From positions 695,001-759,000 of the forward strand of contig JASSKH010000040.1 of assembly GCA_031763025.1 (NCBI GenBank): a DNA stretch of 64,000 nt, given 5' to 3'. Position 1 is the stretch's first letter; each line of letters starts with the position of its first letter. A program made the translations under genes and the position numbers. The notes below the pieces were generated by a model. It was not told the origin of the DNA. It was given only the letters and a program-made list of their open reading frames with translations, and made no database searches. This stretch comes from Macrocystis pyrifera. Lineage: Eukaryota > Sar > Phaeophyceae > Laminariales > Laminariaceae. Below are positions 26,551 to 50,896 of the stretch, piece by piece.

Positions 26551-27176
26551 AGGACATCCCAGTCGGGAAACATGTCGTCCGGTCGTCCGCAAGCTCTGAT
26601 GAGTTGTTTCGTTTGATGATTGGACGCGTCTACGATATTCAGACGTCGCACTGGCGGGTGCCACACCCTGACGAAGCCTGGATGGAGACAAGTCGATCCG
26701 ACTTGACCCACTGGGATGAGGGCTACCAGGGCACCGGAAGCCGGGAATAATCTCAACGCCAAAACCAATATCTGGCGGGAGCAAGAACAGCTGGTCGGAT
26801 ATTGAGCGGTAGGCGCACTCGGCTGCCGGGATGGCCGTGTCACACCGATCCTGACATGAGCCCAGCACGGGTGGGTTTTTGAGCGCCGGGGCGACGGGAT
26901 TCAACACAAAAATGCGTGGCGACCGTCCGAACCAGTGGTACGCTGAGGGCCTATTAACATGGCCAGGATTGAACCATCGGAATCTCCCTGTCGAAACAAC
27001 ATGGGTTACTGAGGAAATGTTGTCGGATAGGAACGCCTTGCTCTGCTTGCTTAAGGCCGCGCTGACACCCCCAAGATGCTCCTGGTCCCCGGGTGTTCGG
27101 TCGCTCTAATCTCTAGATGTTTTATAAAAAATATCGCTATTTTAGCACGCTGCGTTCAGAACTTCGGCTGGTTCGT

Positions 27177-28812
27177 GCTTACCTGGGAGCGACCGTGACT
27201 CGAAAACAAATCGTCACTGCAGCTTGTGTATCTATCGAGATTGCTTCCCGTCGAGTTCTCAACAGAGGCCTACACCTCGACTTAGAGGTGCCGCAGTGGT
27301 CGAAACTGGTCGAAATTTGGGGTGCACAAAGTGAGACAGAAAAAAAAAACAGTTAAACGTTTGCACTTCATTTGCGGACAGCTACTGCTCCTCACAGGAA
27401 TCTACAGCCTGCGAAATTGAGGGATGCTCCTGATGAGGTGTGAGAGGCAGTCGGGTGCGCCAGACGGCAGTCATAGGCAGCCAGAAACGACTCACGAGGT
27501 GTTGTCGTGTACTCGAAGTCGCGTGCGAGTAGCAGAAAAAGCTAAAAAAACTCAATAATGCTTCGTTTCATGCGCGGGAGCATAGTACATTGGGTACATC
27601 ACAGATGAAGAAAGGGCCTTCACTAACAGTGTTCTCCAGGCGGATGATCTATCTCTTTTCGAGCCGTCGTCGAAGATGCCGCGGGAGGAAAAACTACGTT
27701 CCCATGATAGGTGCCTGGTAGTAGAGTTATTGGGGCCAAAAAAGGGCGAACGAAAGGGCTAAAAAACTCAGGATTCTTGTATATTTGCATCAATTTTTCT
27801 AAAACTGCGAAATACGGACCTTGGTTTAAATCCCCCCTTAAAAGTTCAAGTTGTATTTACAATGTTGCCGAAACACCTACGCGCGGTTACTCGACGCATT
27901 CTTGAGGGTACTAGAGTAACGCATTCTTGAGGGCACTAGAGTAACCTTAATCAAAGCACGAAAGCACCTGCCTGATATTTTTAAGTACCACCAAAGAATC
28001 GAAGGCAGTCAAAATAAATCAAACACGAACGATCGTGCCACTTGTTTTGTCGATCTGTGGCACATCGTGCATCAGTGTCGCCCTTGCCACCATGTTCGAT
28101 CCATCGCTGATTATCCATCCTCATTGTATTGACTACTGTAGCACGGCACAACAGTGCCGCGCTACTGCACTACTGCTGCATCACTGCAAACTATGATGGG
28201 ATTCAGAGGCTCTTGTGGGGGAAACTGAGAAGTACTCCGCCCGGACTCGAGCACCAGATGAGACAGCCGAAGGTGTGATATCCAGGTCGTTTTCTGGTCC
28301 GAGGGCTGACGGCTGCTGCTGCAACAGTACTGTTCAAGTTATAATAGATTGTAGAGATTTGTTTGAGTTTAATTTCATCATTTTTAATTGGTTTGACACG
28401 CCATCGTGGACGCGACGTTGACTGGCGTGCGAAGCCAAACGAAGCCAGCTATCTCCTTCGCCCTTCCTTCCAAGAGGCAACGCTCTTTTGCTCATGCGAT
28501 GTCGAAGTGTTCCCGTCGGCTCTGTCTGTGCTGTTTTCGGTCTTAGGCCAGCCGAGAGTGCCCTAGGTGGTCTGGAGAAGTTCGACAAGAGAAACACGAC
28601 AGTTTGGTCAGGTTGTAAGGCCAAGGGACGCGCCAAGGTTCGAAGCCGTAACGGAGATCACCAAAAGAAAAACAGGGCAAGGATACGAAAAAAGAAACAC
28701 CATCTGTCTTCGTCGTGCAGAGGTACTTGATGGAAGCCGCTGATGTAGCAGGAACAGGCCTGGTTCTGTGTAGAGTGCTTGTCTGCTTGGTCAATATAAG
28801 TCTTTGAACAAG
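27177..28812. other. 3' flank of LRR gene A, no gene seen
   Basis: Includes a direct repeat of GTAACGCATTCTTGAGGG-CA (near 27,890 and 27,917) and several small frames. Nothing recognised. The equivalent is 38,051-39,688 in copy B. Confidence 0.35.
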
Positions 28813-31800
28813 CTATCCTGTGTCTATCATCACCTTTAGAGGGGCCGGCGCGACAATCATCGACATACGGCCAGTTGGTACATTTCCCGCCTTCGTCGCA
28901 TCCCCACCAGTACTCGCGTTCCTGTTGTTATCATCTTTTGACGCTTGTCGCTTCTTCCCTCCTTCCGCAGCGACTGCGTGATTGTCGCCGCTGCTGCCGC
29001 GCGTCGCAACGCCTCTACGAACGCGAAATTCTTTAGCCGCGCTTCCCTCCGCCTTGCTCGTACAGTTGATTTTTCGTGCACGCAACCCATTTTCAATTTC
29101 TACGTGCCCCTTGGCGCTATCTCTTCCATCACCGCTACTGCCGCCGCCACCGCTTCCACCACCGCCGTCACCGCTACCGTTGCTGCCGCTGGTGTGCCGT
29201 CCACGCCCTCTCCTTTCGATACGGCTTGCATCGCGCCCAGCGTCATTGCCCTGACTGGAGCAGGATTGTGAAGGTTTGTGGTCATCGCTGGCACTATCCT
29301 GGCAGTGTCCGCTACCGCCAAGGCTGGACCTCGATGACACCGTGCCTGCCACCTTTCCAGAAGCAGGCGATTCTAAATATTGTCCTTCAACGGTGGCCCG
29401 CAAGACATCGGACAGGCTCTCCTCGTCCCGGCCGCCAGAGGCATTGGTGTTGCCCACGCCGACCCCTTTCTTCAGTTGTTCTATCCCGCACACAGGAAGG
29501 CACGGAAGGGATGGTGGGGGGTGGGGGCGTACAGGTGACGTTTGAGGCATGGTGCGCACCGTGGTGTTGAGGCCGTGCAATGTGTGTATGTATATACCTG
29601 CAGGTGTGGCGACATGTGTGCCTAAGTATAGTTCGGGCCAGGCTGCGATAGGTGGGAAGGGAGGGAGTGTGCGATCAGCGTGTATAATAAAAGAAAAGGA
29701 ATTGCCAGAAAAAACACAGGATTGATAACGCTCCTTCTCTTTTCGTTCGGCGAAGGTTAAGGTGCGTCTTATCCTCTTGGATGCGCCAGACTGTCTGGGG
29801 CAGCCGATAGATGCTTCTTGGCCGACTCGTCACTCCCTGTGCCTTCCTCTTACCACCCATGCCTTTCTCACTACGTTTCTTTCGGCTTCTCGCTCTCGTT
29901 CCCACTTCTCTATTTTCTCTGTAGGTATGTTCGTTTACGTATCCGTCCGTCTGTCTGTCTGTCTGTCTGGCCGCCGTCTTCGGTTTATCTGTCTGTCTCT
30001 CTGTATAAGATGTTTTTCTCACTTATTTTCCCTCGCTTTCTCCTGCATCATCTATGTGTATGCACCTGTCCTACTCTGGTTGCCCCCCTGCCCTCTCGTT
30101 ATATTTCTCCGTATGTGCTCGAGTCTCTACCTCCCTCAATTCCTTCATTTCCCTCTCCCTCTCTCTATATACCCGCCTCTCTCTCTCTTTTTCTCTGTCT
30201 CTCTCTCACTTTACACCTTGCTCCCTCTCTCGGTCACTCTCTAGTTCCTCTTACCATGTCTGTATAACTCTCCCTCCCCCCCCTCGCCCCTTTATTTCCC
30301 TACCCTCCTTAACCTCTCTCTCTATGACACACCGAAGCGACGGTCTCTGACCGCCTCTTGAAAGTTGCAGGCCAAAGCTGCTGTCAGCAGCCCTTCCCCT
30401 TGCTGCTCTCCGTCCTCCATCCGCAAGTGCTCAGCGTATGCCACGCACTCTCCCGCCTCCCTGTGCTTTTGTAAGCGGAACTCCTGTGTTACGAGGGGGG
30501 TGGGGGGGAGAGGAGACAAGGAAGGGAGGCACGGAGGGGGGGAAACCTGGTTTATCACGTTTCGCGTCTCACGCATGTTAAGATAGTATTGTGGTCCCGG
30601 CCAGGGTGCGCATCTGCTGTTATAGAGCTAGTTGGTGCGAACACGCCTCAGCAAGACAACCGTGGACGAAAGAGGTAGTCCCCCTTCCCATCGCCAGGCC
30701 CTCTCCCTTCCACCACGACCGCCGATTGCAGCATAGCAGCTCTTGGCGATGAGCAACCACGCTGAGCGGTCCACCTGAAACGCGTCGTTGAGCTGCCGTT
30801 CTTGAGCCTTGAGCACCGCCTTTCGCCTCTCCATGCGGGCTCGCTCTTCCTCCACACTCCGGTAGTATTCTGATGGGATACACACAGCGGTGAAACACCA
30901 GGGGAGAGGCGATCACACTCACGCACGTGGGAAGGGCAGTTGCGAGGTCTTCGAACACCTCGAACACAAACACCACACAACACAATGCAAAATCTAGTGT
31001 GCGTAAAGGCCGTGCGTAGAGGGGGTGGGGGTGAGGATTGATCACCCACGTATGTCATGACGCGTGCTGCCCAAAACGGTCGAGGGAAGAGACCTGCCTC
31101 ATGGGGGGGGGGGGGAGGATTGCTTGCCCCCGCCCTCGCTCAGGTAACAGCGGCGGCGGCCGGCTCTTTTATGCAATGCTAAAAGAGATGGAAGGAACGG
31201 ACGGGCGGTGAGTGTCGCGAGCGCCGAGAGCGCAAGTACAGCATTACACTTCCCATGACGCAGCAATGAAAAATATTTCCGTTCGACACTTGACTTATTT
31301 ACACAGCTAATGTTGGCAATGTGACGCCTTTTCTTGCCAGACGTCCACCCCGATACAGTAGTAGTAGTGACACCAGAATCGTAGATAACGTCACAAGTCA
31401 ATCAAAGTATCTTCGACCAATCAAAATCCCCCTTTAAATCGTTATGGCCAAATAATTAATCAGAAACTTGCAGGCACGCTTCCCGTTTCTATCTTTGTAC
31501 CATTGCGCGTGCTTCTTTCTGTTATATGAGTATGCGCATCGTGTGCCAGCAGGCATCTTGCAACGGGCGCATCGCAGAGCACAACTTGGAAAAAAAAAGC
31601 CTCCTCACCGCTGTCGGCTGTTTCTCGCACGTGGGCGAGAGCCTTGGCTTCCGCCGCTCGGTGAATTTGTCGCCCAAGAGCCTCGGCGTCTACCGGGCGA
31701 TGGTCCAGCCGCCGCATCATCTCGCAGCTCGTGAGGACGGTGATGCGGTACTGGGGCTCCAGCACCACCTGCATCGGTGACGCGCCGGACCATCAACCAT

Positions 31801-34800
31801 TAAACACCGTGAATCCCCCGTAGCCCATCACCCGGCATGGATCATCTATCATCCGTCGTCCATCGTCCAACCGTTCATTGTCCCTTCATCCCAGCATTTA
31901 TCGCCTATCATGCGTAATGCATCGTCCATAGTTCAGCATCTACTCTTCATCACCCATCATCCATCATGCACCCCCGAGGGTCAACCGAATACAAAACAAA
32001 ACAAATAATCGCGAAAGGCGTGCGATCGCCTCTCTCAACCAATGGCGACAACCTTTGTTCCAGGGAGGAGGGCGCGTTTTTTTTTTTCGGTTTGGCCGGC
32101 GCGCGCCCCCACTCGCCCCCGCGCAAGAAAACGAACGCGCGACGAGCGGTGCTCGTGACGCTGTGTTGCGTCACACGCTCCCTTCCCAACCCCGCCGCGC
32201 GCCCCGCCCACAAGAAGGAACGCCGAGAGCAAGGGAATCTGGTGGATGCGATAGATCGTATCGTATACCTAGTATAGTAGTAGCTTTAATTGAACACGGC
32301 AAAACAGAAACAAGAAACACAGATCCCCAGCCTTTGCTGGGCCCCGGGAGTATACTCAGGGGAGTCACCGATCCGACTATTTCTTCGCGAGACGTGCAGC
32401 ACAACGTCTGCGACTGGCGCATCACACAGCCTAAGGCAGCACGCGCCTTGACGTACGTATACGGAGCGTGCAGATTTCAATCCTGAGCACCAACAACCCC
32501 GTTGGTCGATTTTTTCAGCTTGAAGTACCGCAGTTTTATAACGTACCAAAATTATTCAGGAAGACATTTCCCGACATCGTTGTAGCACGCACCCCCCCCC
32601 CCCACGCCACGTAGATCTAAGTCGCCCCTCCAAAATGACGCCAGCGTGTGAAAAGGAGGCGAGACGTACAAGTGTCTACTTATCACCTCGGACGGGGTTC
32701 GTGGGTGTTCGCGAAACCCAGCGGAAAGCTTCCGGTTCAAGGATAAACTAGGGGGGAACAGTAGAGAAAAGCGGAAGGGGGGGGGGGAGTGGGCGAAAGC
32801 AAGCTCACCGGGTTTCCCTCCGCAATGACTTCCTCGAGGCCGGAAGGACGCGCAAGGGCTCTCGCGAAGGTGGACAGGGCCGAGAGCCTGTTTGACGAGC
32901 AGTCAAGGAAGCGAAGGGCCTGCAGCAGCGCCACCCAGTCGATGGAGCTCAGCTCGTTGTCTGCGCGTTTTTTGGTGGGCGCACGCGCGCGCGCGAGGAC
33001 GGTCGTGAGGGAACCAGGAGGGGAGAGAGAAAGGAGTTTGAGGATAACGCCACAGGCTTTGCTCAACACCCGTCGGCACGCGGCAAGGAAGACATACAGT
33101 CACACCACCGGCTCTCTCATGGCAAGGAATGCCACAAGAACGAGCCCGATAGAAAAATCTAGAGTGCCTTAAATTTCCGAGGAATAAGAAATCCGGGAAC
33201 GGTGATGATTGGAAGTGGGTGTGGAACACACCTCTTCTTCCTTCAATACGAAGTAGAGCCTGGACCAATATCCTGCTTTCTTACGTGTGAGAGGGCCGAT
33301 ATTGCCCGCGCATCGAATCAGATAGTCTCGAAACCCACCAAAAGCATGATTACAATGTACGCCGTAGCGTACCATTCGAACAAATATGGCGGGTAGGAAT
33401 CGGACAAAAAAGTACGATCTTGACGCATATCATCCAGTATACACCGCTGAGCCGCCCATCCCCCCCGCGTCTCTCGATCGCAACAATCCATGGTGGCTTT
33501 GTGGCTGTGCCAAGTATTGTAAAAGGTCACAGTTCAGTCGCTGCGATAAACGAAGCCGACGAGGCGAGAGGAGAGCCCAGAGAGAGAGCGAAGGCCGCAG
33601 TAAAACAACTTCAAACACAGGTTTATGAGACGTACTTACAGGTGCGAAACGTGCAAACCATGGCATTTGCAAGCAACACATTTCGGGCAGAAAATCGACA
33701 CAAATCAGAGTTGTATACCAGGTACCTGGTATGTGTTTATGTACAGTGAAGTTGTAGAAAAGTTAACTGCACCCACTATTTTGGGGGCAACTTGCTCGAA
33801 ATTCGTGTGGAAATTTTTCTTCAGCAGTATTAGGAGTTAAGGTAAGCGCTACCTCGATACGAATTTGGTACCGCCGCGTCATCCGAACCTGAAACGTCCA
33901 CTCGCTCGAGTGACGGCAGAGAGACCGCGGCATCCTCCTCGAAGCACTCGAGACAATTGCTGGCAAGCCTGAGCTCCTTGAGGTGTCGGAAGGAACCAGG
34001 GGACCGCGGCGCCTCCATGATTGATATCAAGTTGTGCGACAGGTCCACATGGCGAAGGGTCGAGCCCTTCCCCAGATCCCCCAGCGCTCGAGAGGATTCC
34101 AGCTGGTTGTTCACGGCGACAAGCACCTAGTGTGTTTTAGTTGTAGCGCAAAATTGAATAAAAAAAAAACGATTGGTGAAAGAGTTGACCGGGTTTGTTA
34201 AGGGCGAAGGGTTGGCCAGTTGGTTTTAAATCGAAGAGGTAATCGAACGTTTTGAGGGGGAGAGGCAACCGGCAAAGGGTTTTTGCCAAGAGGTATATAC
34301 GGACAGGTGATCAATAGTCTTCTCCTCCCGCGAGAGTTTGGTCTACACGATCGACACTCTTTTGGTTACTAGCCACGAGTAGTGAGGGATGACTGATCGT
34401 CAAAACAGTATTTGCAGAGCCGCGCTACGCTAGGAGTTTACTCGTTGAAGCCCCAAACATTTCCCGCTACTGATGGAGCTCCTCGATGGAGGAGCTACCT
34501 CCCCGATATTGTTGGGCCCAATGCATACTATATAGATAAGCATTCGTTCAGAATGCTCAGGCTAAACTATTTCTGACCTACGGGGGCTCCCCAACTGAGC
34601 AATCGCTGGGAAGTCACTTGCGTTCAACGCTATTTCTGATGTGTATTTTAATAGGGCATGGTATCAATCATGGGTTTGCACTTTCATGTTCCTCGGGGTC
34701 TGGTTGCTGCCGGTACTGAGGTATAGAGCGCTGCAAGCGAGAGGAGCCTAAGAAAATAGTAGCTGCATGCACCGCCATATACCGTAGCATGCGCCTATTA

Positions 34801-36183
34801 CGGGGGTCCATAGTTAACGGGACCAAATTTTGTTAGAAAAAATAGGTAAATATATAGGTTTTATGTATACCGTAGGTCCTATTAACTATGGACCCCCATA
34901 ATAGACGCCTGTGAATGGTTAACAGCCCATGGGACTTCGTGTCGAGCGTGGCTTACAAACAAGCTTTTTCCTGACCGCTTGTTGGGGCCCCTCGAGTGAG
35001 AGGGGCCTCAGAAAGTTAGGCGCCACTCCTATCATGGTACGGGTCGACGAAGAGCGAAAGAGAGCGAGCGTGAGAACAGGGGCGCCGTTAGCTTCGGGAG
35101 ACAGTCTCAGCCAAAACGAGAGCAGCGAGAAGACGCGTGTGATACGAAACGCGGCGCTGCTGTAAACGGAGCAGGAAACGCTGATTTGACTCGGTGCCGC
35201 ATGGGCGACGATCAAACCCTGCCCACACCGATTCACTTATATATTGTCACCCAGAATTTTGCTGTTTCGCTCGTCCCGGATACCCCCATACCCACCCGTC
35301 TGGTAGAGGATTGATCCCCCCCCCCCCCCCCCCCCCCCCCCCCCGAGTCTAGAAACACGCGGAAACGCACCTGTATATGGCGGAGTTCCTGTACAGCGTC
35401 CAGGTCGTCGATGAGGTTGTGCGAAACGTCGAGAATTATCTGTGAAGAGCAGGAGAGTTGGTGAACGCGCACGGGTACTGTGTCGGGCTTGTGGTCGAGG
35501 AGCTTTTGCGTGCCGAAGCCGGATGGCAGGCACGAGGCTAGGGCGGGGAGCGCATGGGGATGCCGCTTGCAGGGAGAGGAACTACCTTGGGGTTAACCTT
35601 TCATACCCCCGTTCGGCCCGTGTATCCTTCCTTGTAATATTTTGGAGCTGCTCGACAGCAGTAATTATTTCGTGTTGGGTTCCTCAACGTTCGTACCGAG
35701 CATTGCCACACCGCAGGCACAACTGTCGACACCTCAGTTTCCCCCATATCATCGACTCTCCGCCTCTTACAAAGACAACGTCAGTGCAGCGGTTAGACTC
35801 CGAGATGGATGGTATCCTAACTCTAACCCCGTGGTTATGTGTTTCCATTCACCGTTTGAAAGGCTCCCAGGTCGTGTCGACTCGCGGCAACACTCCGTCG
35901 CCGACCCGACGTACCCGACCCCCTGCCCCATCATTCCGGCACTGTATGGGTGCGAGGGCCTAAGGCCATAGGACTAAGACCACGCGTGACACGAGTACAT
36001 CCCCCTCCCCCCCCCCCCCCGCCGAAAATGCTCCTGGCCGGACCGAGACGGGGGGTCATTTACCACGTTACAGAGACCAGGCTGGTCGGTGATGGCTTCG
36101 ATGTCCCTCAGTCGGTTGAGGGACGCGTCCAGGAACACACAACGCCAAGAGCTCGCGCCCCCTTCGTCCTGCGACGGTGACAT
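28813..36183 (-). CDS. LRR protein, copy A (8-exon model)
   Basis: Exons on the minus strand: 36183-36064, 35439-35371, 34126-33889, 32960-32809, 31768-31609, 30869-30775, 30483-30333, 29480-28813 (550 aa). All introns are GT-AG and phase is kept at every junction. Joining exons 3 and 4 completes the LRR motif LERVDVSDNELSSIDW, and joining 4 and 5 gives IAEGNPVVLEPQYRITVL, which supports those splices. Repeats at about residues 20-195 follow the short SDS22-like pattern (ILDVSHNLIDDLDAV; LRHVDLSHNLISIM; LKELRLASNCLECF; LRFLDCSSNRLSAL). Residues 194-246 resemble an LRR cap (EMMRRLDHRPVDAEAL). Residues 247-310 are helical and charged, probably coiled coil. The tail is Gly/Ser-rich and basic. 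The start ATG follows an in-frame TAG eight codons upstream and an AT-rich TATA-like block. If exon 7 is not spliced, the protein stops at 30,322 (331 aa). Probably a protein-binding scaffold; specific partner unknown. Confidence 0.7.
29930..30270 (+). repeat. Pyrimidine-rich GTCT/CTCT tract, copy A
   Basis: GTCT repeats (about 29,948-29,970) followed by long CT-rich sequence inside intron 7 of the LRR gene. The equivalent lies at 40,820-41,150 in copy B, with one GTCT unit group shorter and other indels. It creates long Ser/Leu/Phe-rich open frames on the plus strand that are not genes. Confidence 0.7.
31796..31975. repeat. CATC/CATT-rich minisatellite, copy A
   Basis: Dense CATC, CATT and CCATC words within intron 4 of the LRR gene. 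The equivalent lies at about 42,665-42,845 in copy B. Non-coding. Confidence 0.5.
34791..34908. mobile_element. MITE, family GGGGGTCCATAGTTAA, copy 1
   Basis: The left end CTATTACGGGGGTCCATAGTTAA and the reverse complement of the right end agree over about 27 bp with two mismatches. The interior (GGACCAAATTTTGTTAGAAA; AATATATAGG; TACCGTAGGTCC) is shared with the copies at 45,650 and 56,945. About 118 bp, no coding capacity. It lies in intron 2 of the LRR gene. Confidence 0.8.
35316..35344 (-). repeat. 29-nt C-run in intron 2 of LRR gene A
   Basis: A pure C-run on the plus strand (G-run in the transcript) starts about 25 nt after the splice donor of exon 2 (donor at 35,369-35,370). The same tract is 60 C, one T and 6 C at 46,179-46,245 in copy B. 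A shorter C-run at 36,007-36,020 (14 nt) sits in intron 1 and is 26 nt in copy B. Confidence 0.9.
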
Positions 36184-36203
36184 GTTTGTTGGGACGCGCC
36201 ATG

Positions 36204-36235
36204 ACTATAAATATTTATATATATATATATAATTA
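36204..36235 (-). promoter_or_regulatory. TATA-like AT block upstream of LRR gene A
   Basis: A run of alternating A/T (TATAAATATTTATATATATA) ends about 21 bp upstream of the ATG of the LRR model at 36,183. It could be a core promoter element with a very short leader, or a simple repeat in an intron if the gene starts further upstream. In copy B the same block (47,118-47,147) differs by AT-repeat length. Confidence 0.25.
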
Positions 36236-37489
36236 ACCCTTTTTGGATCTCAGATGAAAAAACTGGCGAACACAAAACATGGCGATCTCAGCAACATCAT
36301 CGACCGCACAAGCAGTCACGGGGGGTGCTGGGGTAGGGGAGAACAAAACGTATCCGGCAGTACATACCCCAACTACAATGCAGGAGTTTCGTACGACACG
36401 TGCGCTGACAACGCGTTCGGCATGTGCATTTTTTTTTACGTACGTACGTGCTGCGCCCTCCTCACAACGTGGTAACGGACGGATAGAAAACAAATATTTC
36501 TTCGCTTTGTTATGCGCGATATCGTATATACCTGGGTATTGAAAGGGTTTCGCGGTACCTCGTTCTATCTTGTAAGATTGTGTTCGATTTACAGCCCTCG
36601 GAATTGAGCATCACCAAACGAACGGTTCTCCGTCGTGGAGGGGTGAACCATAAGTGATGCACCCTTTTGCGGTAAACAACTACAGCAATTGTAGCCTCAC
36701 GCTGCTGCTACTATTCGTGAACCTGGGTCAACCGTGGTCCACGTGTACGCTCGTGGGCTACGGCTGCCACCACCGCTGCTACTACTGCTACTGCTGTTGT
36801 AAATCGTTCAAGAAGAAGGGGAGTCCAAATTAGTTACATCCCGGAGTATCATTTTTTTGGTGTCGAAAATGCCGATGTGCTTGTTTTGCTTTCGTTTTGG
36901 GAATCCCCGCCAGAGATCTGGTGGCGCTTTTGTTGCCGGCGATCGACAGAAAAAACCGAAATCTTCAGTTTTTACGTCGTCGGCTGTCGCTATGCTTGTT
37001 TCATACTCATGGACAGGTGTATAAAAGGGAGGAAAGTCTGGAGGGGAATATATCATCATCACGAATCGAGACCCGCCTGCCTGGCTTTCGGGGCTGAATC
37101 AGCGGGGAAGCGGCTGCTCTTTACGTGGCGACTGTAGTTTCATGAAGCACTACAGGAGTCTCTTGCCACTGACGCTTCCGTAGGTGACGCGACGAGAGGA
37201 CTAGAAATTCGCAGTTTGCATGCGCAAAAAAACAGTACGGTTATTGTCGCAGGAGAAGCGATATAATTAGTAGACGGACACCAAGGCTGAAACCAGTGCC
37301 AGTACTCCGCTGTACCAGGCACCCTAGAGCAACCTCGAAGGTGCGGCGATCGACCGCGAGGACCCTTCGCTCGGCGTGAAACGTTCGGACAATTGAGGGT
37401 ATTTTATATGGGTCTGTCTTGTCGAGTAAACCGCCATCTAACTCCTCTCTTGCCATAAAGTGGTGTTGGGTATCGAGACATATTTCGAC

Positions 37490-37735
37490 GGGATACGACA
37501 TCTCGAGATCAGTCCCCATACTGCGGATATGGATACGATATTTCGATATATCGTATCTTGATATATCGCATGATATGGATATGATATCACGACATACAGC
37601 GGCATATGATGCGATGTAAACCGCTCGGTACGCAAATGTATGTTTTGATCGCGAAATATCGCATGATATAAGATACGATATGATGTCGGGATACACTTGT
37701 CGGTATTGATATCGAAATATCCCGAAAATATCACA
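37490..37735. repeat. ATATCG/GATATG-rich palindromic block, copy A
   Basis: The words GATATC, ATATCG, CGATAT and CATGATAT recur many times, giving overlapping small palindromes. The equivalent lies at about 48,405-48,650 in copy B. The long minus frame across it (37,241-37,897) is Ile/Ser/Tyr/Arg-rich as a direct result. Confidence 0.7.
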
Positions 37736-39688
37736 TGTTATACCGAGAATTCTAGATACGATGCTCAACACTACCATAAAGCAGCACGTACGAGGAAGAC
37801 ACGCCGCTATTGATGGGTTCCGTTTCATGCACGCGTGGCCATAAACCTTGGTGGTGAAACGCCATCTATTCCCTGGAACCTGGAACGCAAGAAACACCTT
37901 TTCATCAACCTTACTTTCTGTCTCGTCTTCCCCTCATCTCTTTGCCGACGCCAACGGCATCGCTGAGATACGGACGACACCATCACCGGCTTGCAATATT
38001 TCCAGCCGTGAGCAGTGGTGTCCGTAACTGATGGCACGTGTGCTGTGTATGCTTACCTGGGAGCGACCGTGACTCGAAAACAAATCGTCACTGCAACTTG
38101 TGTATCTATCGAGATTGCTTCCCGTCGAGTTCTCAACAGAGGCCTACACCTCGACTTAGAGGTGCCGCAGTGGTCGAAACTGGTCGAAATTTGGGGTGCA
38201 CAAAGTGAGACAAAAAAAAAAAAACAGTTAAACGTTTGCACTTCATTTGCGGACAGCTACTGCTCCTCACAGGAATCTACAGCCTGCGAAATTGAGGGAT
38301 GCTCCTGATGAGGTGTGAGAGGCAGTCGGGTGCGCCAGACGGCAGTCATAGGCAGCCAGAAACGACTCACGAGGTGTTGTCGTGTACTCGAAGTCGCGTG
38401 CGAGTAGCAGAAAAAGCTAAAAAAAACTCAATAATGCTTCGTTTCACGCGCGGGAGCATAGTACATTGGGTACATCACAGATGAAGAAAGGGCCTTCACT
38501 AACAGTGTTCTCCAGGCGGATGATCTATCTCTTTTCGAGTCGTCGTCGAAGATGCCGCGGGAGGAAAAACTACGTTCCCATGATAGGTGCCTGGTAGTAG
38601 AGTTATTGGGGCCAAAAAAGGGCGAACGAAAGGGCTAAAAAACTCAGGATTCTTGTATATTTGCATCAATTTTTCTAAAACTGCGAAATACGGACCTTGG
38701 TTTAAATCCCCCCTTAAAAGTTCAAGTTGTATTTACAATGTTGCCGAAACACCTACGCGCGGTTACTCGACGCATTCTTGAGGGTACTAGAGTAACGCAT
38801 TCTTGAGGACACTAGAGTAACCTTAATCAAAGCACGAAAGCACCTGCCTGATATTTTTAAGTACCACCAAAGAATCGAAGGCAGTCAAAATAAATCAAAC
38901 ACGAACGATCGTGCCACTTGTTTTGTCGATCTGTGGCACATCGTGCATCAGTGTCGCCCTTGCCACCATGTTCGATCCATCGCTGATCATCCATCCTCAT
39001 TGTATTGACTACTGTAGCACGGCACAACAGTGCCGCGCTACTGCACTACTGCTGCATCACTGCAAACTATGATGGGATTCAGAGGCTCTTGTGGGGGAAA
39101 CTGAGAAGTACTCCGCTCGGACTCGAGCACCAGATGAGACAGCCGAAGGTGTGATATCCAGGTCGTTTTCTGGTCCGAGGGCTGACGGCTGCTGCTGCAA
39201 CAGTACTGTTCAAGTTATAATAGATTGTAGAGATTTGTTTGAGTCTAATTTCATCATTTTTAATTGGTTTGACACCCCATCGTGGACGCGACGTTGACTG
39301 GCGTGCGAAGCCAAACGAAGCCAGCTATCTCCTTCGCCCTTCCTTCCAAGAGGCAACGCTCTTTTGCTCATGCGATGTCGAAGTGTTCCCGTCGGCTCTG
39401 TCTGTGCTGTTTTCGGTCTTGGGCCAGCCGAGAGTGCCCTAGGTGGTCTGGAGAAGTTCGACAAGAGAAACACGACAGTTTGGTCAGGTTGTAAGGCCAA
39501 GGGACGCGCCAAGGTTCGAAGCCGTAACGGAGATCACCAAAAGAAAAACAGGGCAAGGATACGAAAAAAGAAACACCATCTGTCTTCGTCGTGCAGAGGT
39601 ACTTGATGGAAGCCGCTGATGTAGCAGGAACAGGCCTGGTTCTGTGTAGAGTGCTTGTCTGCTTGGTCAATATAAGTCTTTGAACAAG

Positions 39689-42600
39689 CTATCCTGTGTC
39701 TATCATCACCTTTAGAGGGGCCGGCGCGACAATCATCGACATACGGCCAGTTGGTACATTTCCCGCCTTCGTCGCATCCCCACCAGTACTCGCGTTCCTG
39801 TTGTTATCATCTTTTGACGCTTGTCGCTTCTTCCCTCCTTCCGCAGCGACTGCGTGATTGTCGCCGCTGCTGCCGCGCGTCGCAACGCCTCTACGAACGC
39901 GAAATTCTTTAGCCGCGCTTCCCTCCGCCTTGCTCGTACAGTTGATTTTTCGTGCACGCAACCCATTTTCAATTTCTACGTGCCCCTTGGCGCTATCTCT
40001 TCCATCACCGCTACTGCCGCCGCCACCGCTTCCACCACCGCCGTCACCGCTACCGTTGCTGCCGCTGGTGTGCCGTCCACGCCCTCTCCTTTCGATACGG
40101 CTTGCATCGCGCCCAGCGTCATTGCCCTGACTGGAGCAGGATTGTGAAGGTTTGTGGTCATCGCTGGCACTATCCTGGGAGTGTCCGCTACCGCCAAGGC
40201 TGGACCTCGATGACACCGTGCCTGCCACCTTTCCAGAAGCAGGCGATTCTAAATATTGTCCTTCAACGGTGGCCCGCAAGACATCGGACAGGCTCTCCTC
40301 GTCCCGGCCGCCAGAGGCATTGGTGTTGCCCACGCCGACCCCTTTCTTCAGTTGTTCTATCCCGCACACAGGAAGGCACGGAAGGGATGGTGGGGGGTGG
40401 GGGCGTACAGGTGACGTTTGAGGCATGGTGCGCACCGTGGTGTTGAGGCCGTGCAATGTGTGTATGTATATACCTGCAGGTGTGGCGACATGTGTGCCTA
40501 AGTATAGTTCGGGCCAGGCTGCGATAGGTGGGAAGGGAGGGAGTGTGCGATCAGCGTGTATAATAAAAGAAAAGGAATTGCCAGAAAAAACACAGGATTG
40601 ATAACGCTCCTTCTCTTTTCGTTCGGCGAAGGTTAAGGTGCGTTTTATCCTCTTGGATGCGCCAGACTGTCTGTGGCAGCCGATAGATGCTTCTTGGCCG
40701 ACTCGTCACTCCCTGTGCCTTCCTCTTACCACCCATGCCTTTCTCACTACGTTTCTTTCGGCTTCTCGCTCTCGTTCCCACTTCTCTATTTTCTCTGTAG
40801 GTATGTTCGTTTACGTATCCGTGCGTCTGTCTGTCTGTCTGTCTGGCCGTCTTCGGTTTATCTGTCTGTCTCTCTGTATAAGATGTTTTTCTCACTTATT
40901 TTCCCTCGCTTTCTCCTGCATCATCTATGTGTATGCACCTGTCCTACTCTGGTTGCCCCCCTGCCCTCTCGTTATATTTCTCCGTATGTGCTCGAGTCTC
41001 TACCTCCCTCAATTCCTTCCTTTCCCTCTCCCTCTCTCTATATACCCGTCTCTCTCTCTTTTTCTCTGTCTCTCTCTCTTACTTTACACCTTGCTCCCTC
41101 TCTCGGTCACTCTCTAGTTCCTCTTACCATGTCTGTATAACTCTCCCTCCCCCCCCTCGCCCCTTTATTTCCCTACCCTCCTTAACCTCTCTCTCTATGA
41201 CACACCGAAGCGACGGTCTCTGACCGCCTCTTGAAAGTTGCAGGCCAAAGCTGCTGTCAGCAGCCCTTCCCCTTGCTGCTCTCCGTCCTCCATCCGCAAG
41301 TGCTCAGCGTATGCCACGCACTCTCCCGCCTCCCTGTGCTTTTGTAAGCGGAACTCCTGTGTTACGAGGGGGGGGGGGGGGAGAGGAGACAAGGAAGGGA
41401 GGCACGGAGGGGGGGAAACCTGGTTTATCACGTTTCGCGTCTCACGCATGTTAAGATAGTATTGTGGTCCCGGCCAGGGTGCGCATCTGCTGTTATAGAG
41501 CTAGTTGGTGCGAACACGCCTCAGCAAGACAACCGTGGACGAAAGAGGTAGTCCCCCTTCCCATCGCCAGGCCCTCTCCCTTCCACCACGACCGCCGATT
41601 GCAGCATAGCAGCTCTTGGCAATGAGCAACCACGCTGAGCGGTCCACCTGAAACGCGTCGTTGAGCTGCCGTTCTTGAGCCTTGAGCACCGCCTTTCGCC
41701 TCTCCATGCGGGCTCGCTCTTCCTCCACACTCCGGTAGTATTCTGATGGGATACACACAGCGGTGAAACACCAGGGGAGAGGCGATCACACTCACGCACG
41801 TGGAAAGGGCAGTTGCGAGGTCTTCGAACACCTCGAACACAAACACCACACAACACAATGCAAAATCTAGTGTGCGTAAAGGCCGTGCGTAGAGGGGGTG
41901 GGGGTGAGGATTGATCACCCACGTATGTCATGACGCGTGCTGCCCAAAACGGTCGAGGGAAGAGACCTGCCTCATGGGGGGGGGAGGATTGCTTGCCCCC
42001 GCCCTCGCTCAGGTAACAGCGGCGGCGGCCGGCTCTTTTATGCAATGCTAAAAGAGATGGAAGGAACGGACGGGCGGTGAGTGTCGCGAGCGCCGAGAGC
42101 GCAAGTACAGCATTACACTTCCCATGACGCAGCAATGAAAAATATTTCCGTTCGACACTTGACTTATTTACACAGCTAATGTTGGCAATGTGACGCCTTT
42201 TCTTGCCAGACGTCCACCCCGATACAGTAGTAGTAGTGACACCAGAATCGTAGATAACGTCACAAGTCAATCAAAGTATCTTCGACCAATCAAAATCCCC
42301 CTTTAAATCGTTATGGCCAAATAATTAATCAGAAACTTGCAGGCACGCTTCCCGTTTCTATCTTTGTACCATTGCGCGTGCTTCTTTCTGTTATATGAGT
42401 ATGCGCATCGTGTGCCAGCAGGCATCTTGCAACGGGCGCATCGCAGAGCACAACTTGGAAAAAAAAAGCCTCCTCACCGCTGTCGGCTGTTTCTCGCACG
42501 TGGGCGAGAGCCTTGGCTTCCGCCGCTCGGTGAATTTGTCGCCCAAGAGCCTCGGCGTCTACCGGGCGATGGTCCAGCCGCCGCATCATCTCGCAGCTCG

Positions 42601-45600
42601 TGAGGACGGTGATGCGGTACTGGGGCTCCAGCACCACCTGCATCGGTGACGCGCCGGACCATCAACCATTAAACACCGTGAATCCCCCGTAGCCCATCAC
42701 CCGGCATGGATCATCTATCATCCGTCGTCCATCGTCCAACCGTTCATTGTCCCTTCATCCCAGCATTTATCGCCTATCATGCGCAATGCATCGTCCATAG
42801 TTCAGCATCTACTCTTCATCACCCATCATCCATCATGCACCCCCGAGGGTCAACCGAATACAAAACAAAACAAATAATCGCGAAAGGCGTGCGATCGCCT
42901 CTCTCAACCAATGGCGACAAGCTTTGTTCCAGGGAGGAGGGCGCGTTTTTTTTTTTCGGTTTGGCCGGCGCGCGCCCCCACTCGCCCCCGCGCAAGAAAA
43001 CGAACGCGCGACGAGCGGTGCTCGTGACGCTGTGTTGCGTCACACGCTCCCTTCCCAACCCCGCCGCGCGACCCGCCCACAAGAAGGAACGCCGAGAGCA
43101 AGGGACTCTGGTGGATGCGATAGATCGTATCGTATACCTAGTATAGTAGTAGCTTTAATTGAACACGGCAAAACAGAAACAAGAAACACAGATCCCCAGC
43201 CTTTGCTGGGCCCCGGGAGTATACTCAGGGGAGTCACCGATCCGACTATTTCTTCGCGAGACGTGCAGCACAACGTCTGCGACTGGCGCATCACACAGCC
43301 TAAGGCAGCACGCGCCTTGACGTACGTATACGGAGCGTGCAGATTTCAATCCTGAGCACCAACAACCCCGTTGGTCGATTTTTTCAGCTTGAAGTACCGC
43401 AGTTTTATAACGTACCAAAAGTATTCAGGAAGAAATTTCCCGACATCGTTGTAGCACGCCCCCCCCCCACGCCACGTAGATCTAAGTCGCCCCTCCAAAA
43501 TGACGCCAGCGTGTGAAAAGGAGGCGAGACGTACAAGTGTCTACTTATCACCTCGGACGGGGTTCGTGGGTGTTCGCGAAACCCAGCGGAAAGCTTCCGG
43601 TTCAAGGATAAACTAGGGGGGAACAGTAGAGAAAAGCGGAAGGGGGGGGGAGTGGGCGAAAGCAAGCTCACCGGGTTTCCCTCCGCAATGACTTCCTCGA
43701 GGCCGGAAGGACGCGCAAGGGCTCTCGCGAAGGTGGACAGGGCCGAGAGCCTGTTTGACGAGCAGTCAAGGAAGCGAAGGGCCTGCAGCAGCGCCACCCA
43801 GTCGATGGAGCTCAGCTCGTTGTCTGCGCGTTTTTTGGTGGGTGCACGCGCGCGCGAGGACGGTCGTGAGGGAACCAGGAGGGAGAGAGAAAGGAGTTTG
43901 AGGATAACGCCACAGGCTTTGCTCAACACCCGTCGGCACGCGGCAAGGAAGACATACAGTCACACCACCGGCTCTCTCATGGCAAGGAATGCCACAAGAA
44001 CGAGCCCGATAGAAAAATCTAGAGTGCCTTAAATTTCCGAGGAATAAGAAATCCGGGAACGGTGATGATTGGAAGTGGGTGTGGAACACACCTCTTCTTC
44101 CTTCAATACGAAGTAGAGCCTGGACCAATATCCTGCTTTCTTACGTGTGAGAGGGCCGATATTGCCCGCGCATCGAATCAGATAGTCTCGAAACCCACCA
44201 AAAGCATGATTACAATGTACACCGTAGCGTGCCATTCGAACAAATATGGCGGGTAGGAATCGGACAAAAAAGTACGATCTTGACGCATATCATCCAGTAT
44301 ACACCGCTGAGCCGCCCATCCCCCCCGCGTCTCTCGATCGCAACAATCCATGGTGGCTTTGTGGTTGTGCCAAGTATTGTAAAAGGTCACAGTTCAGTCG
44401 CTGCGATAAACGAAGCCGACGAGGCGAGAGGAGAGCCCAGAGAGAGAGCGAAGGCCGCAGTAAAACAACTTCAAACACAGGTTTATGAGACGTACTTACA
44501 GGTACGAAACGTGCAAACCATGGCATTTGCAAGCAACACATTTCGGGCGGAAAATCGACACAAATCAGAGTTGTATACCAGGTACCTGGTATGTGTTTAT
44601 GTACAGTGAAGTTGTAGAAAAGTTAACTGCACCCACTACTTTGGGGGCAACTTGCTTGAAATTCGTGTGGAAATTTTTCTTCAGCAGTATTAGGAGTTAA
44701 GGTAAGCGCTACCTCGATACGAATTTGGTACCGCCGCGTCATCCGAACCTGAAACGTCCACTCGCTCGAGTGACGGCAGAGAGACCGCGGCATCCTCCTC
44801 GAAGCACTCGAGACAATTGCTGGCAAGCCTGAGCTCCTTGAGGTGTCGGAAGGAACCAGGGGACCGCGGCGCCTCCATGATTGATATCAAGTTGTGCGAC
44901 AGGTCCACATGGCGAAGGGTCGAGCCCTTCCCCAGATCCCCCAGCGCTCGAGAGGATTCCAGCTGGTTGTTCACGGCGACAAGCACCTAGTGTGTTTTAG
45001 TTGTAGCGCAAAATTGAATAAAAAAAAACGATTGGTGAAAGAGTTGACCGGGTTTGTTAAGGGCGAAGGGTTGGCCAGTTGGTTTTAAATCGAAGAGGTA
45101 ATCGAACGTTTTGAGGGGGAGAGGCAACCGGCAAAGGGTTTTTGCCAAGAGGTATATACGGACAGGTGATCAATAGTCTTCTCCTCCCGCGAGAGTTTGG
45201 TCTACACGATCGACACTCTTTTGGTTACTAGCCACGAGTAGTGAGGGATGACTGGTCGTCAAAACAGTATTTGCAGAGCCGCGCTACGCTAGGAGTTTAC
45301 TCGTTGAAGCCCCAAACATTTCCCGCTACTGATGGAGCTCCTCGACGGAGGAGCTACCTCCCCGATATTGTTGGGCCCAATGCATACTATATAGATAAGC
45401 ATTCGTTCAGAATGCTCAGGCTAAACTATTTCTGACCTACGGGGGCTCCCCAACTGAGCAATCGCTGGGAAGTCACTTGCGTTCAACGCTATTTCTGATG
45501 TGTATTTTAATAGGGCATGGTATCAATCATGGGTTTGCACTTTCATGTTCCTCGGGGTCTGGTTGCTGCCGGTACTGAGGTATAGAGCGCTGCAAGCGAG

Positions 45601-46177
45601 AGAAGCCTAAGAAAATAGTAGCTGCATGCACCGCCATACACCGTAGCATGCGCCTATTACGGGGGTCCATAGTTAACGGGACCAAATTTTGATAGAAAAA
45701 ATAGGTAAATATATAGGTTTTTATGTATACCGTAGGTCCTATTAACTATGGACCCCCATAATAGACGCCTGTGAATGGTTAACAGCCCATGGGACTTCGT
45801 GTCGAGCGTGGCTTACAAACAAGCTTTTTCCTGACCGCTTGTTGGGGCCCCTCGAGTGAGAGGGGCCTCAGAAAGTTAGGCGCCACTCCTATCATGGTAC
45901 GGGTCGACGAAGAGCGAAAGAGAGCGAGCGTGAGAAGAGGGGCGCCGTTAGCTTCGGGAGACAGTCTCAGCCAAAACGAGAGCAGCGAGAAGACGCGTGT
46001 GATACGAAACGCGGCGCTGCTGTAAACGGAGCAGGAAACGCTGATTTGACTCGGTGCCGCATGGGCGACGATCAAACCCTGCCCACCACACCGATTCACT
46101 TATATATTGTCACCCAGAATTTTGCTGTTTCGCTCGTCCCGGATACCCCCATACCCACCCGTCTGGTAGAGGATTGA

Positions 46178-46241
<64 letters not shown>

Positions 46242-47096
46242 CCCCGAGTCTAGAAACACGCGGAAACGCACCTGTATATGGCGGAGTTCCTGTACAGCGT
46301 CCAGGTCGTCGATGAGGTTGTGCGAAACGTCGAGAATTATCTGTGAAGAGCAGGAGAGTTGGTGAACGCGCACGGGTACTGTGTCGGGCTTGTGGTCGAG
46401 GAGCTTTTGCGTGCCGAAGCCGGATGGCAGGCACGAGGCTAGGGCGGGGAGCGCACGGGGATGCCGCTTGCAGGGAGAGGAACTACCTTGGGGTTAACCT
46501 TTCATACCCCCGTTCGGCCCGTGTATCCTTCCTTGTAATATTTTGGAGCTGCTCGACAGCAGTAATTATTTCGTGTTGGGTTCCTCAACGTTCGTACCGA
46601 GCATTGCCACACCGCAGGCACAACTGTCGACACCTCAGTTTCCCCCATATCATCGACTCTCCGCCTCTTACAAAGACAACGTCAGTGCAGCGGTTAGACT
46701 CCGAGATGGATGGTATCCTAACTCTAACCCCGTGGTTATGTGTTTCCATTCACCGTTTGAAAGGCTCCCAGGTCGTGTCGACTCGCGGCAACACTCCGTC
46801 GCCGACCCGACGTACCCGACCCCCTGCCCCATCATTCCGGCACTGTATGGGTGCGAGGGCCTAAGGCCATAGGACTAAGACCACGCGTGACACGAGTACA
46901 TCCCCCTCCCCCCCCCCCCCCCCCCCCCCCCCCGCCGAAAATGCTCCTGGCCGGACCGAGACGGGGGGTCATTTACCACGTTACAGAGACCAGGCTGGTC
47001 GGTGATGGCTTCGATGTCCCTCAGTCGGTTGAGGGATGCGTCCAGGAACACACAACGCCAAGAGCTCGCGCCCCCTTCGTCCTGCGACGGTGACAT
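39689..47096 (-). CDS. LRR protein, copy B (8-exon model)
   Basis: Exons: 47096-46977, 46340-46272, 44986-44749, 43823-43672, 42637-42478, 41742-41648, 41356-41206, 40356-39689. Exon lengths equal those of copy A (120, 69, 238, 152, 160, 95, 151, 668 bp), and all splice dinucleotides and phases are kept. The predicted protein appears to differ from copy A at one position in the Gly/Ser-rich tail, Ser in place of Cys (GGSGHSQDSASDD versus GGSGHCQDSASDD). Exons unchanged beside introns with indels suggest recent duplication, purifying selection, or both. The alternative stop in unspliced exon 7 is at 41,195. Function as for copy A: SDS22-like LRR scaffold, partner unknown. Confidence 0.7.
45650..45768. 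mobile_element. MITE, family GGGGGTCCATAGTTAA, copy 2
   Basis: Duplicated version of the 34,791 element, with small differences (GATAGAAA for GTTAGAAA; one extra T). It arose through the segmental duplication, not by a separate insertion. Confidence 0.8.
46179..46245 (-). repeat. 67-nt C-run in intron 2 of LRR gene B
   Basis: 60 C, one T, 6 C. It starts about 25 nt downstream of the exon-2 donor. More than twice the 29-nt run in copy A. Confidence 0.9.
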
Positions 47097-48965
47097 GTTT
47101 GTTGGGACGCGCCATGACTATAAATATTTTTATATATATATAATTAACCCTTTTTGGATCTCAGATGAAAAAACTGGCGAACACAAAACATGGCGATCTC
47201 AGCAACATCATCGACCGCACTAAGCAGTCACGGGGGGTGCTGGGGTAGGGGAGAACAAAACGTATCCGGCAGTACATACCCCAACTACAATGCAGGAGTT
47301 TCGTACGACACGTGCGCTGACAACGCGTTCGGCATGTGCATTTTTTTTTTTACGTACGTACGTGCTGCGCCCTCCTCACAACGTGGTAACGGACGGATAG
47401 AAAACAAATATTTCTTCGCTTTGTTATGCGCGATATCGTATATACCTGGGTATTGAAAGGGTTTCGCGGTACCTCGTTCTATCTTGTAAGATTGTGTTCG
47501 ATTTACAGCCCTCGGAATTGAGCATCACCAAACGAACGGTTCTCCGTCGTGGAGGGGTGAACCATAAGTGATGCACCCTTTTGCGGTAAACAACTACAGC
47601 AATTGTAGCCTCACGCTGCTGCTACTATTCGTGAACCTGGGTCAACCGTGGTCCACGTGTACGCTCGTGGGCTACGGCTGCCCACCACCGCTGCTACTAC
47701 TGCTACTGCTGTTGTAAATCGTTCAAGAAGAAGGGGAGTCCAAATTAGTTACATCCCGGAGTATCATTTTTTTGGTGTCGAAAATGCCGATGTGCTTGTT
47801 TTGCTTTCGTTTTGGGAATCCCCGCCAGAGATCTGGTGGCGCTTTTGTTGCCGGCGATCGACAGAAAAAACCGAAATCTTCAGTTTTTACGTCGTCGGCT
47901 GTCGCTATGCTTGTTTCATACTCATGGACAGGTGTATAAAAGGGAGGAAAGTCTGGAGGGGAATATATCATCATCACGAATCGAGACCCGCCTGCCTGGC
48001 TTTCGGGGCTGAATCAGCGGGGAAGCGGCTGCTCTTTACGTGGCGACTGTAGTTTCATGAAGCACTACAGGAGTCTCTTGCCACTGACGCTTCCGTAGGT
48101 GACGCGACGAGAGGACTAGAAATTCGCAGTTTGCATGCGCAAAAAAACAGTACGGTTATTGTCGCAGGAGAAGCGATATAATTAGTAGACGGACACCAAG
48201 GCTGAAACCAGTGCCAGTACTCCGCTGTACCAGGCACCCTAGAGCAACCTCGAAGGTGCGGCGATCGACCGCGAGGACCCTTCGCTCGGCGTGAAACGTT
48301 CGGACAATTGAGGGTATTTTATATGGGTCTGTCTTGTCGAGTAAACCGCCATCTAACTCCTCTCTTGCCATAAAGTGGTGTTGGGTATCGAGACATATTT
48401 CGACGGGATACGACATCTCGAGATCAGTCCCCATACTGCGGATATGGATACGATATTTCGATATGTCGTATCTTGATATATCGCATGATATGGATATGAT
48501 ATCACGATATACAGCGGCATATGATGCGATGTAAACCGCTCGGTACGCAAATGTATGTTTTGATCGCGAAATATCGCATGATATAAGATACGATATGATG
48601 TCGGGATACACTTGTCGGTATTGATATCGAAATATCCCGAAAATATCACATGTTATACCGAGAATTCTAGATACGATGCTCAACACTACCATAAAGCAGC
48701 ACGTACGAGGAAGACACGCCGCTATTGATGGGTTCCGTTTCATGCACGCGTGGCCATAAACCTTGGTGGTGAAACGCCATCTATTCCCTGGAACCTGGAA
48801 CGCAAGAAACACCTTTTCATCAACCTTACTTTCTGTCTCGTCTTCCCCTCATCTATTTGCCGACGCCAACGGCATCGCTGAGATACGGACGACACCATCA
48901 CCGGCTTGCAATATGTCCAGCCGTGAGCAGTGGTGTCCGTAACTGATGGCACGTGTGCTGTGTAT

Positions 48966-49490
48966 ATTTTGCCCTCCGGTTGTAGTTAAGCACGATACTG
49001 GCTACACTGACTACTCGGCGCATAAACTACTTTCACTATATACGCCGATTATTTGGTTTTTATTGTTCTGGGAGGAAATCGGAAATCGGCGTTTGTAACT
49101 GTCGTTTCCCCTTCCAGAGGAGTTGAATTCTTTGTTTTACCGCTATGAAATACAAACGATCTCTCATACGTAGTGGGGTTGCTGGGGTCGCGACGCTCAT
49201 TGGCGGTCAGAAGCACTATAAAAAAGCAGTTTGGTGCTGTTCTTTCGACGCGTTTTGGACGAATCATTCAAGTTATGGCGTGGAACTTGGAGTCGTCGAC
49301 AACCAATGTGTATTGGCGCGTCTACCTGTCACATCTATGTCACGGCTGCTGGTCGTTTGTAAGGGTTGTACATATATCTATCGAGTGCCGCTTCGCTCGC
49401 GAACTGTCTCCACCTCTTCGTTAGGGGGGGTGTCGGGCTCCGTATGTGACGTAGACGTTGAACTGTAGCAGTTGAATCGCAGTATTGCAC

Positions 49491-49525
<35 letters not shown>

Positions 49526-50896
49526 ACAATTACTACTACTACAACTACCACTGCTACTGTAGTCCTCCTCCTCCTCTCCCCTCCTTTTCCTCCCCCTCTT
49601 CCTACTACTGCTGCCAAAGCGGTAACGGGGCACGTACACGGTGAACGCGAGAATTCACGTTGGCTAGTATCCTTCGGGACTGCGGCAATCGAACGTCTGC
49701 CTCGTATTTTGAGTCACCTTGTCGCCACCATCACCATCAGATTCCCAGGGAGACCGGCCCTCCGCTGGAACACCAACGAGCGATTCAAGGTCGCACCAGT
49801 GCAAGTCGAGCCCCCAAAATCCGTCGGAAGGACCCTGGAAGCCACGACAAGTTCAGGCCAGGACAACGTTAGGTGTCGCTAGAGCTTCACATTGCCAGGC
49901 AATCATCTATAGAGGTACTCATCTTGCGATTCGCAGCATTACCTCTTGAAGCAGTGACATAAACCCCTCCTTTTCGAGTACGGCAGTGAGTGCGCGCGGC
50001 CGTGACCTGCGTAATTTGCGTCAAATAGCCCATGGTCTCCTCGCCCAAAGTTCACAATCGAGAGAGGCAACGCTAGACAAATATATCACCACCACCACAT
50101 CCACCACTACCACCAACAACGACAACAACAATGAAAACAACAGAAACAGAAACAAAATCAAAAACAACAATTATTAATAGTAAACAGCAGTGGCATACGC
50201 TGCCTGTGACCGAAATTATCTTGAGGCCGGTGCCCGGTCTGTCGTGCCACGTGTATCTGGTGTCTTGTACATACAACACTATTACCTGGTACGTCGGAAT
50301 ACTGCGTTGAATTTCGCGATGATCAGACTTATTATTAATTAAGTAAAATAATGGTACGAGTAACAAATGTACTAATATTACTCGTACTGTATACGGATGT
50401 TCGCATACCATCACGCTACGATCCGCCACCGCCACTGGTGGTGTAATTTGGAGGAATCGTTGCTGTAACATTTCTGGGACTTGGAGGCAACGACGAACAG
50501 CACTGCTGGGAGCAATATGTTGCCCTCTGAATAATGCTATCCAAGGGATCTGGCTTATGGAATTCCAGCACGCTTGTTGGAACCAACCATACACTGGAAA
50601 TAGTGCTGGTACGCGTACCTTGTTGCGATCGTAAAGCGTCGCTACTATATACAAGTAGAACATTATGGCCCCATTTCCAGCGATTGCCTACGACTGCGAA
50701 CTGAATCAAGTACTTACGGGACCGTAAAAAATGAACGGGCCGCTGCATCGTAATGTTGTGCGAGGACTCGACCGTACCGCACGGGTGGGCGCTATCCCCC
50801 ATTACGAGTTCCTACTGGAGGTGGGCAAAATATAGACCTTCTGTACTTTTTCTTACAAGCACCTGTAGGAACGTAAAAAATCACGGACGGTGCGTG
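48966..50896. other. Intergenic with trinucleotide repeats
   Basis: A TAG/GTA run at 49,492-49,525 and an ACC/AAC-rich patch at 50,087-50,165. Open frames through them (49,472-49,882 plus; 50,073-50,663 minus) are mostly translations of the repeats. The part after the repeat (49,640-49,882) is open but has no recognisable domain. Confidence 0.35.

What the first reader, a model, noticed from the sequence alone, without database searches (positions are those of the whole stretch)
27177..48965. Recent direct tandem duplication of a 10.9-kb gene-bearing segment
Two head-to-tail copies meet exactly at 38,050/38,051 and agree at nearly every base outside homopolymers. Each contains a complete set of eight LRR exons. 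Either this is a very young gene duplication (or copy-number polymorphism), or two haplotypes were assembled in series. The longer C-runs and scattered substitutions show the copies are not identical reads.
Basis: seen in the sequence. Interest (0 to 1): 0.75.

Follow-up and report, generated by a model that had tools for sequence, protein, structure and literature searches.

The report
Kelp gene partly duplicated in tandem
In what is very probably the giant kelp genome, a 10.9-kb stretch has been copied head-to-tail, but the copying cut the leucine-rich-repeat gene inside it: one copy is the complete gene and the other lacks the first two exons, so this is an ordinary partial gene duplication and not a new pair of whole genes.

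Summary
In detail: two head-to-tail copies (27,176-38,049 and 38,050-48,964) differ by 51 substitutions in 10,856 aligned sites (0.47%) and by 17 indels. The assembly (537,376,219 bases, 223 contigs) fits the published Macrocystis pyrifera genome, made from one haploid female gametophyte with PacBio reads averaging 15.8 kb (passages). Two haplotypes in series is therefore very unlikely; a real duplication is the better reading, although no reads could be examined. The gene-level reading must change. Brown-algal relatives show a ten-exon gene on the minus strand. Exons 1 and 2 (52,788-52,183; 49,834-49,718) lie outside the unit and were found once each in the assembly; exons 3-10 are doubled. 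The right breakpoint falls in intron 2. The right-hand copy is the complete gene (797-aa model); the left-hand copy lacks exons 1-2 and presumably the promoter, though its exons are undamaged. The left breakpoint lies inside a dispersed repeat, and the junction has 1 bp of microhomology, which points to non-homologous joining. This is an ordinary partial-gene tandem duplication. Its divergence is within the range of the species' allelic diversity, so it is not strikingly young.

The parts
27176..38049 (.). Copy A of the duplicated unit (10,874 bp); holds exons 3-10 only
38050..48964 (.). Copy B of the duplicated unit (10,915 bp)
38049..38050 (.). Head-to-tail junction; the T at 38,050 could belong to either copy (1 bp microhomology)
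39692..52788 (-). Complete ten-exon LRR gene (797-aa model); stop codon just below 39,692; start codon presumed
   Evidence: splice-consistent model plus relatives
52183..52788 (-). Exon 1 (from the presumed start codon), outside the unit, found once
49718..49834 (-). Exon 2, outside the unit, found once
48964..48965 (.). Right breakpoint, inside intron 2 (49,717-47,082)
28816..36168 (-). 5'-truncated second copy: exons 3-10 (36,168-36,067; 35,439-35,371; 34,126-33,853; 32,960-32,809; 31,768-31,609; 30,869-30,775; 30,483-30,333; 29,480-28,816)
   Evidence: exon 3 printed 3 nt too long there; matches to relatives
39692..47081 (-). Exons 3-10 of the complete copy (47,081-46,980; 46,340-46,272; 44,986-44,713; 43,823-43,672; 42,637-42,478; 41,742-41,648; 41,356-41,206; 40,356-39,692)
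   Evidence: exon 3 printed 3 nt too long there; matches to relatives
27050..27918 (.). Dispersed repeat (about 80% identical to the 5 copies compared) that the left breakpoint at 27,176 cuts; it continues left of copy A, and is truncated to 38,050-about 38,790 in copy B

Best explanation
A real direct tandem duplication, very probably in the giant-kelp genome, joined a point in intron 2 of a minus-strand LRR gene (right edge) to a point inside a dispersed repeat (left edge), probably by end joining or template switching with 1 bp of microhomology. It left one complete ten-exon gene (right) and, downstream of it, a second set of exons 3-10 without the first two exons and presumably without the promoter (left). 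Shown: the geometry, exons 1-2 found once, undamaged exons in both copies, the 1-bp junction. Inferred: the species, the joining mechanism, and that transcripts end at exon 10 of the complete copy so that the left set is mostly unused.
For: Two units 99.1-99.2% identical with a one-base overlap. Exon 1 is matched outside the unit by 3 of 6 related proteins (P0003, P0004, P0005) and exon 2 by 4 of 6 (with P0006), E 2e-8 or better for a search of this window without low-complexity filter or composition correction; with both on, P0003 still gives 4e-12 and 2e-7 (the other three were not rerun). P0001 and P0002 start further in and match neither outer exon. A search of the whole assembly with P0004 (55 of 241 candidates scored) gave 10 matches, all in this window: exons 1 and 2 once each, exons 5-8 twice each. 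The left breakpoint lies within a dispersed repeat whose homology continues left of copy A (5 of 5 loci compared) but not left of copy B, so the junction is derived. Assembly figures fit M. pyrifera CI_03, haploid, PacBio, Canu.
Against: No reads were available, so junction-spanning reads and depth are untested. The species is inferred from size, contig count and largest contig, not from a record name. C130 (2.8 Mb) is apparently one of the contigs outside the Hi-C scaffolds, so Hi-C does not vouch for it. Coding sites differ less than the rest (2 of 1,671 against 49 of 9,185, Fisher p = 0.018), which could hint that the left copy is not free of constraint. The exon 9/10 border is the least certain part of the model: P0005 supports it, P0006 only weakly (E 0.002-0.006), and P0004 instead gives a 25% identical match running through it in copy A. 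No RNA evidence.
Confidence: 0.87

Rival explanations
1. Assembly artefact: two haplotypes, or a chimeric join, placed in series.
For: 0.47% divergence is what two alleles could show (species diversity 0 to 0.007 per figure legend); Racon-polished long-read assembly with long poly-C runs of differing length.
Against: DNA came from a single haploid female gametophyte, if the assembly is the one inferred; no second place for the right flank or the gene among the scored candidates; the join has no N and no shared sequence beyond 1 bp, so an overlap assembler would have needed reads across it (inference); reads averaged 15.8 kb against a 10.9-kb unit.
Confidence: 0.06
2. Copy A is a working part of the gene: exon 2 splices to exon 3 of either copy, or exon 8 of copy B splices in frame to exon 3 of copy A, giving a protein with a doubled LRR region.
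For: Exons 2 and 8 end in phase 0 and exon 3 begins in phase 0; both exon sets are undamaged; coding divergence is low. Brown-algal ROCO genes do splice tandem LRR exons alternatively (abstract and passages of PMC11378527).
Against: Copy B keeps its own last exon and stop, which should end most transcripts (inference); low coding divergence is also expected if only copy B is constrained and few mutations have occurred; no transcript data.
Confidence: 0.08
3. The duplication arose by unequal crossing-over between repeats at its two edges.
For: The left edge lies in a dispersed repeat, and the unit tail holds low-complexity dispersed sequence.
Against: The sequences at the two ancestral edges share only one base; homologous exchange would leave the shared repeat at the junction.
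Confidence: 0.03

Closest known systems
Partial-gene tandem duplications (as surveyed in Drosophila yakuba, PMC5460883; abstract and section list seen)
   Same: Direct tandem copy with a breakpoint inside a gene, so that a complete and an incomplete copy stand side by side and new exon combinations become possible
   Different: Brown alga; no evidence here of a chimeric or newly expressed transcript
LRR-exon shuffling in brown-algal ROCO genes (PMC11378527; abstract and passages seen)
   Same: Brown alga; LRR motifs spread over several exons; exons repeated in tandem
   Different: No ROC or COR domain found in exons 1-9; exons are not 72-bp phase-2 single-LRR units; here one 10.9-kb block with eight exons was copied once

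Membership tests
Partial-gene tandem (segmental) duplication | Two adjacent, same-orientation, near-identical copies | tested here: met
   99.1-99.2% identity, head to tail
Partial-gene tandem (segmental) duplication | A breakpoint inside a gene, with part of the gene single-copy | tested here: met
   exons 1-2 outside the unit and found once
Partial-gene tandem (segmental) duplication | Junction present in the individual's DNA molecules | not testable with these tools
   no reads held; the inferred haploid source makes it likely
Complete-gene tandem duplication | Both copies hold the entire coding sequence | tested here: not met
   left copy lacks exons 1-2
Brown-algal ROCO (LRR-ROC-COR) genes | ROC and COR domains after the LRRs | tested here: not met
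   Pfam at E up to 0.01 shows only LRR families in the 578-aa model (exons 1-9 with the earlier 3' end; exon 10 was not scanned as part of it)
Brown-algal ROCO (LRR-ROC-COR) genes | 72-bp phase-2 exons, one LRR each | tested here: not met
   coding exons of 606, 117, 102, 69, 274, 152, 160, 95, 151 and 665 nt, ending in phase 0 or 1 (exon 3 corrected by 3 nt)
SDS22-like LRR proteins with a C-terminal LRR cap (features recalled) | LRRs followed by an LRR-cap-like segment | tested here: inconclusive
   PF12799 and PF13855 above cut-off, PF14580 (LRR_9) below cut-off; PP1 regulatory subunit 7 is among the 107 PDB sequences matched but not the best; the cap was seen by eye only

The most novel reading that the evidence does not exclude
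The second exon set is in use: phase-0 exons let the kelp splice copy B into copy A and make an enlarged LRR protein, a freshly born case of the exon-block duplication by which brown-algal LRR genes grow.
Probability: 0.07. Interest if true: 0.5.

Novelty: new member of a known kind. Interest (0 to 1): 0.2.

Why it matters
It is a clean, roughly datable example of a tandem duplication that cuts a gene, in what is very probably a kelp genome sequenced from haploid tissue. It warns that gene prediction may call two LRR genes here where there is one gene plus a 5'-truncated exon set. If the copies are ever spliced together, it would show the first step of LRR-domain growth in brown algae.

Tried and rejected
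Whole unit as a mobile element: first suggested because all 37 matches outside C130 that one search listed begin within 12 bases of the unit edge (query 492-513; edge at 501). Rejected because in the 5 loci compared (of those 37) the repeat continues left of copy A, from about 27,050, and ends about 650-745 bp into the unit. Complete gene inside the unit: my first model (342 aa) began at an ATG just upstream of exon 3; rejected when related proteins showed two more exons outside. Homologous unequal crossing-over: disfavoured for lack of shared sequence at the edges. Uneven divergence as a sign of gene conversion: variance/mean 1.32 in 500-bp bins, p = 0.11 (0.46 without a local group of 7 substitutions at 30,147-30,207); longest substitution-free gap p = 0.066; not significant. 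Searches of the left flank and of three parts of the unit interior did not complete. A paper search on partial tandem duplications with five terms found nothing; a looser one listed the Drosophila paper. Rfam gave no match in the window. An earlier count said about 66 substitutions; that count included flanking columns, and 51 is right.

Full report
Observation. A self-comparison of the window finds 27,176-38,050 repeated at 38,050-48,965 in the same orientation. A global alignment gives 51 substitutions in 10,856 aligned sites (0.47%; 33 transitions, 18 transversions) and 17 indel events; 16 of the 17 lie, by my reading of the printed contexts, in homopolymers or short repeats, the largest being 38 nt in a poly-C tract. 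Substitutions are not significantly clustered over the unit, although 7 fall at 30,147-30,207. The copies abut with one ambiguous base. Matches of this length and identity are not chance.

Where it is. The window is bases 695,001-759,000 of contig C130 (2.81 Mb) of an assembly of 537,376,219 bases in 223 contigs. The Macrocystis pyrifera paper PMC10498591 (passages seen) gives 537 Mb, 223 contigs, a largest contig of 26 Mb (here C189 has 26.5 Mb), DNA from one haploid female gametophyte, PacBio reads averaging 15.8 kb at about 100x, Canu assembly and Racon polishing. The identity of the assembly is inferred from these figures; the related proteins with a named source are also brown-algal. C130 appears to be among the 188 contigs outside the 35 scaffolds; this is inferred from its number and size.

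Real or artefact. A haploid source has no second haplotype to place in series. The join has no N and no shared sequence beyond one base, so an overlap assembler needed reads across it (inference). The right flank and the gene were found only here among the candidates scored (40 of 46, 55 of 241), so no alternative haplotig was seen. Substitution differences are not the usual error of this read type (general knowledge). Reads themselves could not be examined.

The gene. On the minus strand I first built a seven-exon, 342-aa model lying wholly within the unit. A protein search then found brown-algal relatives: Ectocarpus P0001 and P0002 (62% and 61% identity over 82% of the model) and Hapterophycus P0003 (54% over 71%). 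P0003 has an N-terminal part that matches the window at 52,455-52,183 (E 3e-12) and 49,828-49,703 (E 2e-8; 2e-7 with low-complexity filter and composition correction), right of the unit and once each, while its later parts match both copies. A second search with a longer model added P0004 (EukProt, organism not named), P0005 (Ectocarpus) and P0006 (Scytosiphon). P0004 and P0005 match both outer exons, P0006 the second only. P0005 also supports a last exon inside the unit (E about 1e-5, both copies) and P0006 weakly (E 0.002-0.006); P0004 instead gives a 25% identical match that runs on through the exon 9/10 border in copy A. The resulting model has ten exons with GT and AG at the intron borders and 797 codons in the complete copy (which prints 798 because exon 3 was started 3 nt too early; the CAG acceptor is seen). 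A search of the whole assembly with P0004 gave 10 matches, all in this window: exons 1 and 2 once each, exons 5-8 twice each. Exons 3, 4, 9 and 10 were not among the matches of that search; that they are doubled rests. The one TAG counted in each exon 5 match is the splice acceptor next to the exon.

Consequence. The right breakpoint is in intron 2. The right-hand copy keeps exons 1-10; the left-hand copy has exons 3-10 only and lies downstream of the complete gene. Its exons carry no stop or frameshift in the model; over exons 3-10 the copies differ at 2 of 1,671 coding sites (one silent, one C/S at residue 636) and at 49 of 9,185 other aligned sites (Fisher p = 0.018). This speaks only weakly against free drift of both copies and does not show constraint on the left copy.

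Mechanism and age. The left breakpoint lies within a dispersed repeat of about 870 bp (27,050-27,918) whose homology continues to the left of copy A in 5 of 5 loci compared, while copy B has only its right part; copy A therefore keeps the old left edge, copy B the old right edge, and 38,050 is the new joint. One base of microhomology points to end joining or template switching and not to exchange between repeats (inference). The divergence of 0.47% lies inside the 0-0.007 range of nucleotide diversity plotted for the species (figure legend). With substitution rates of 4.07e-10 (Ectocarpus) and 1.22e-9 (Scytosiphon cross) per site per generation (abstract of PMC10254074), it corresponds to about 5.8 and 1.9 million generations; I have no rate for kelp.

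Comparison. This is a partial-gene tandem duplication, a kind reported to shuffle exons and regulation in Drosophila yakuba (abstract of PMC5460883). It is not a ROCO gene on what was tested: Pfam shows LRR families only, in the 578-aa model without exon 10, and its exons are not the 72-bp phase-2 LRR exons described for brown-algal ROCOs (passages of PMC11378527). The function of the protein is not known; an intracellular scaffold of LRRs, a coiled-coil-like stretch and a low-complexity tail is my inference from the sequence, and no structure was predicted.

Verdict. Observation confirmed; artefact unlikely; 'complete gene duplicated' corrected to 'exons 3-10 duplicated'. Ordinary kind of event, modest interest.

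Noticed in passing
10,325-11,179 and 19,076-19,522 (minus strand): Two reverse transcriptase stretches (Pfam RVT_2; that this is the Copia type is recalled). Three other ORFs scanned from 21-25 kb gave no Pfam match.
   Followed up: partly
35,316-35,344 and 46,179-46,245: The same intronic poly-C run is 29 nt in copy A and about 67 nt (96% C) in copy B; true slippage and consensus error of long reads cannot be told apart here.
   Followed up: no
48,466-48,701 (and the same stretch at the tail of copy A): Low-complexity stretch rich in GATATC-like words, with dispersed relatives of 66-97% identity in the genome.
   Followed up: no
1,250-1,459; 4,286-4,467; 56,088-56,393; 62,901-63,142: Short interspersed repeats of about 80-90% identity in both orientations.
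   Followed up: no
P0005, residues about 220-244: The Ectocarpus protein has an insert here, which also forms the start of P0001, that looks like a retained intron in its gene model.
   Followed up: no
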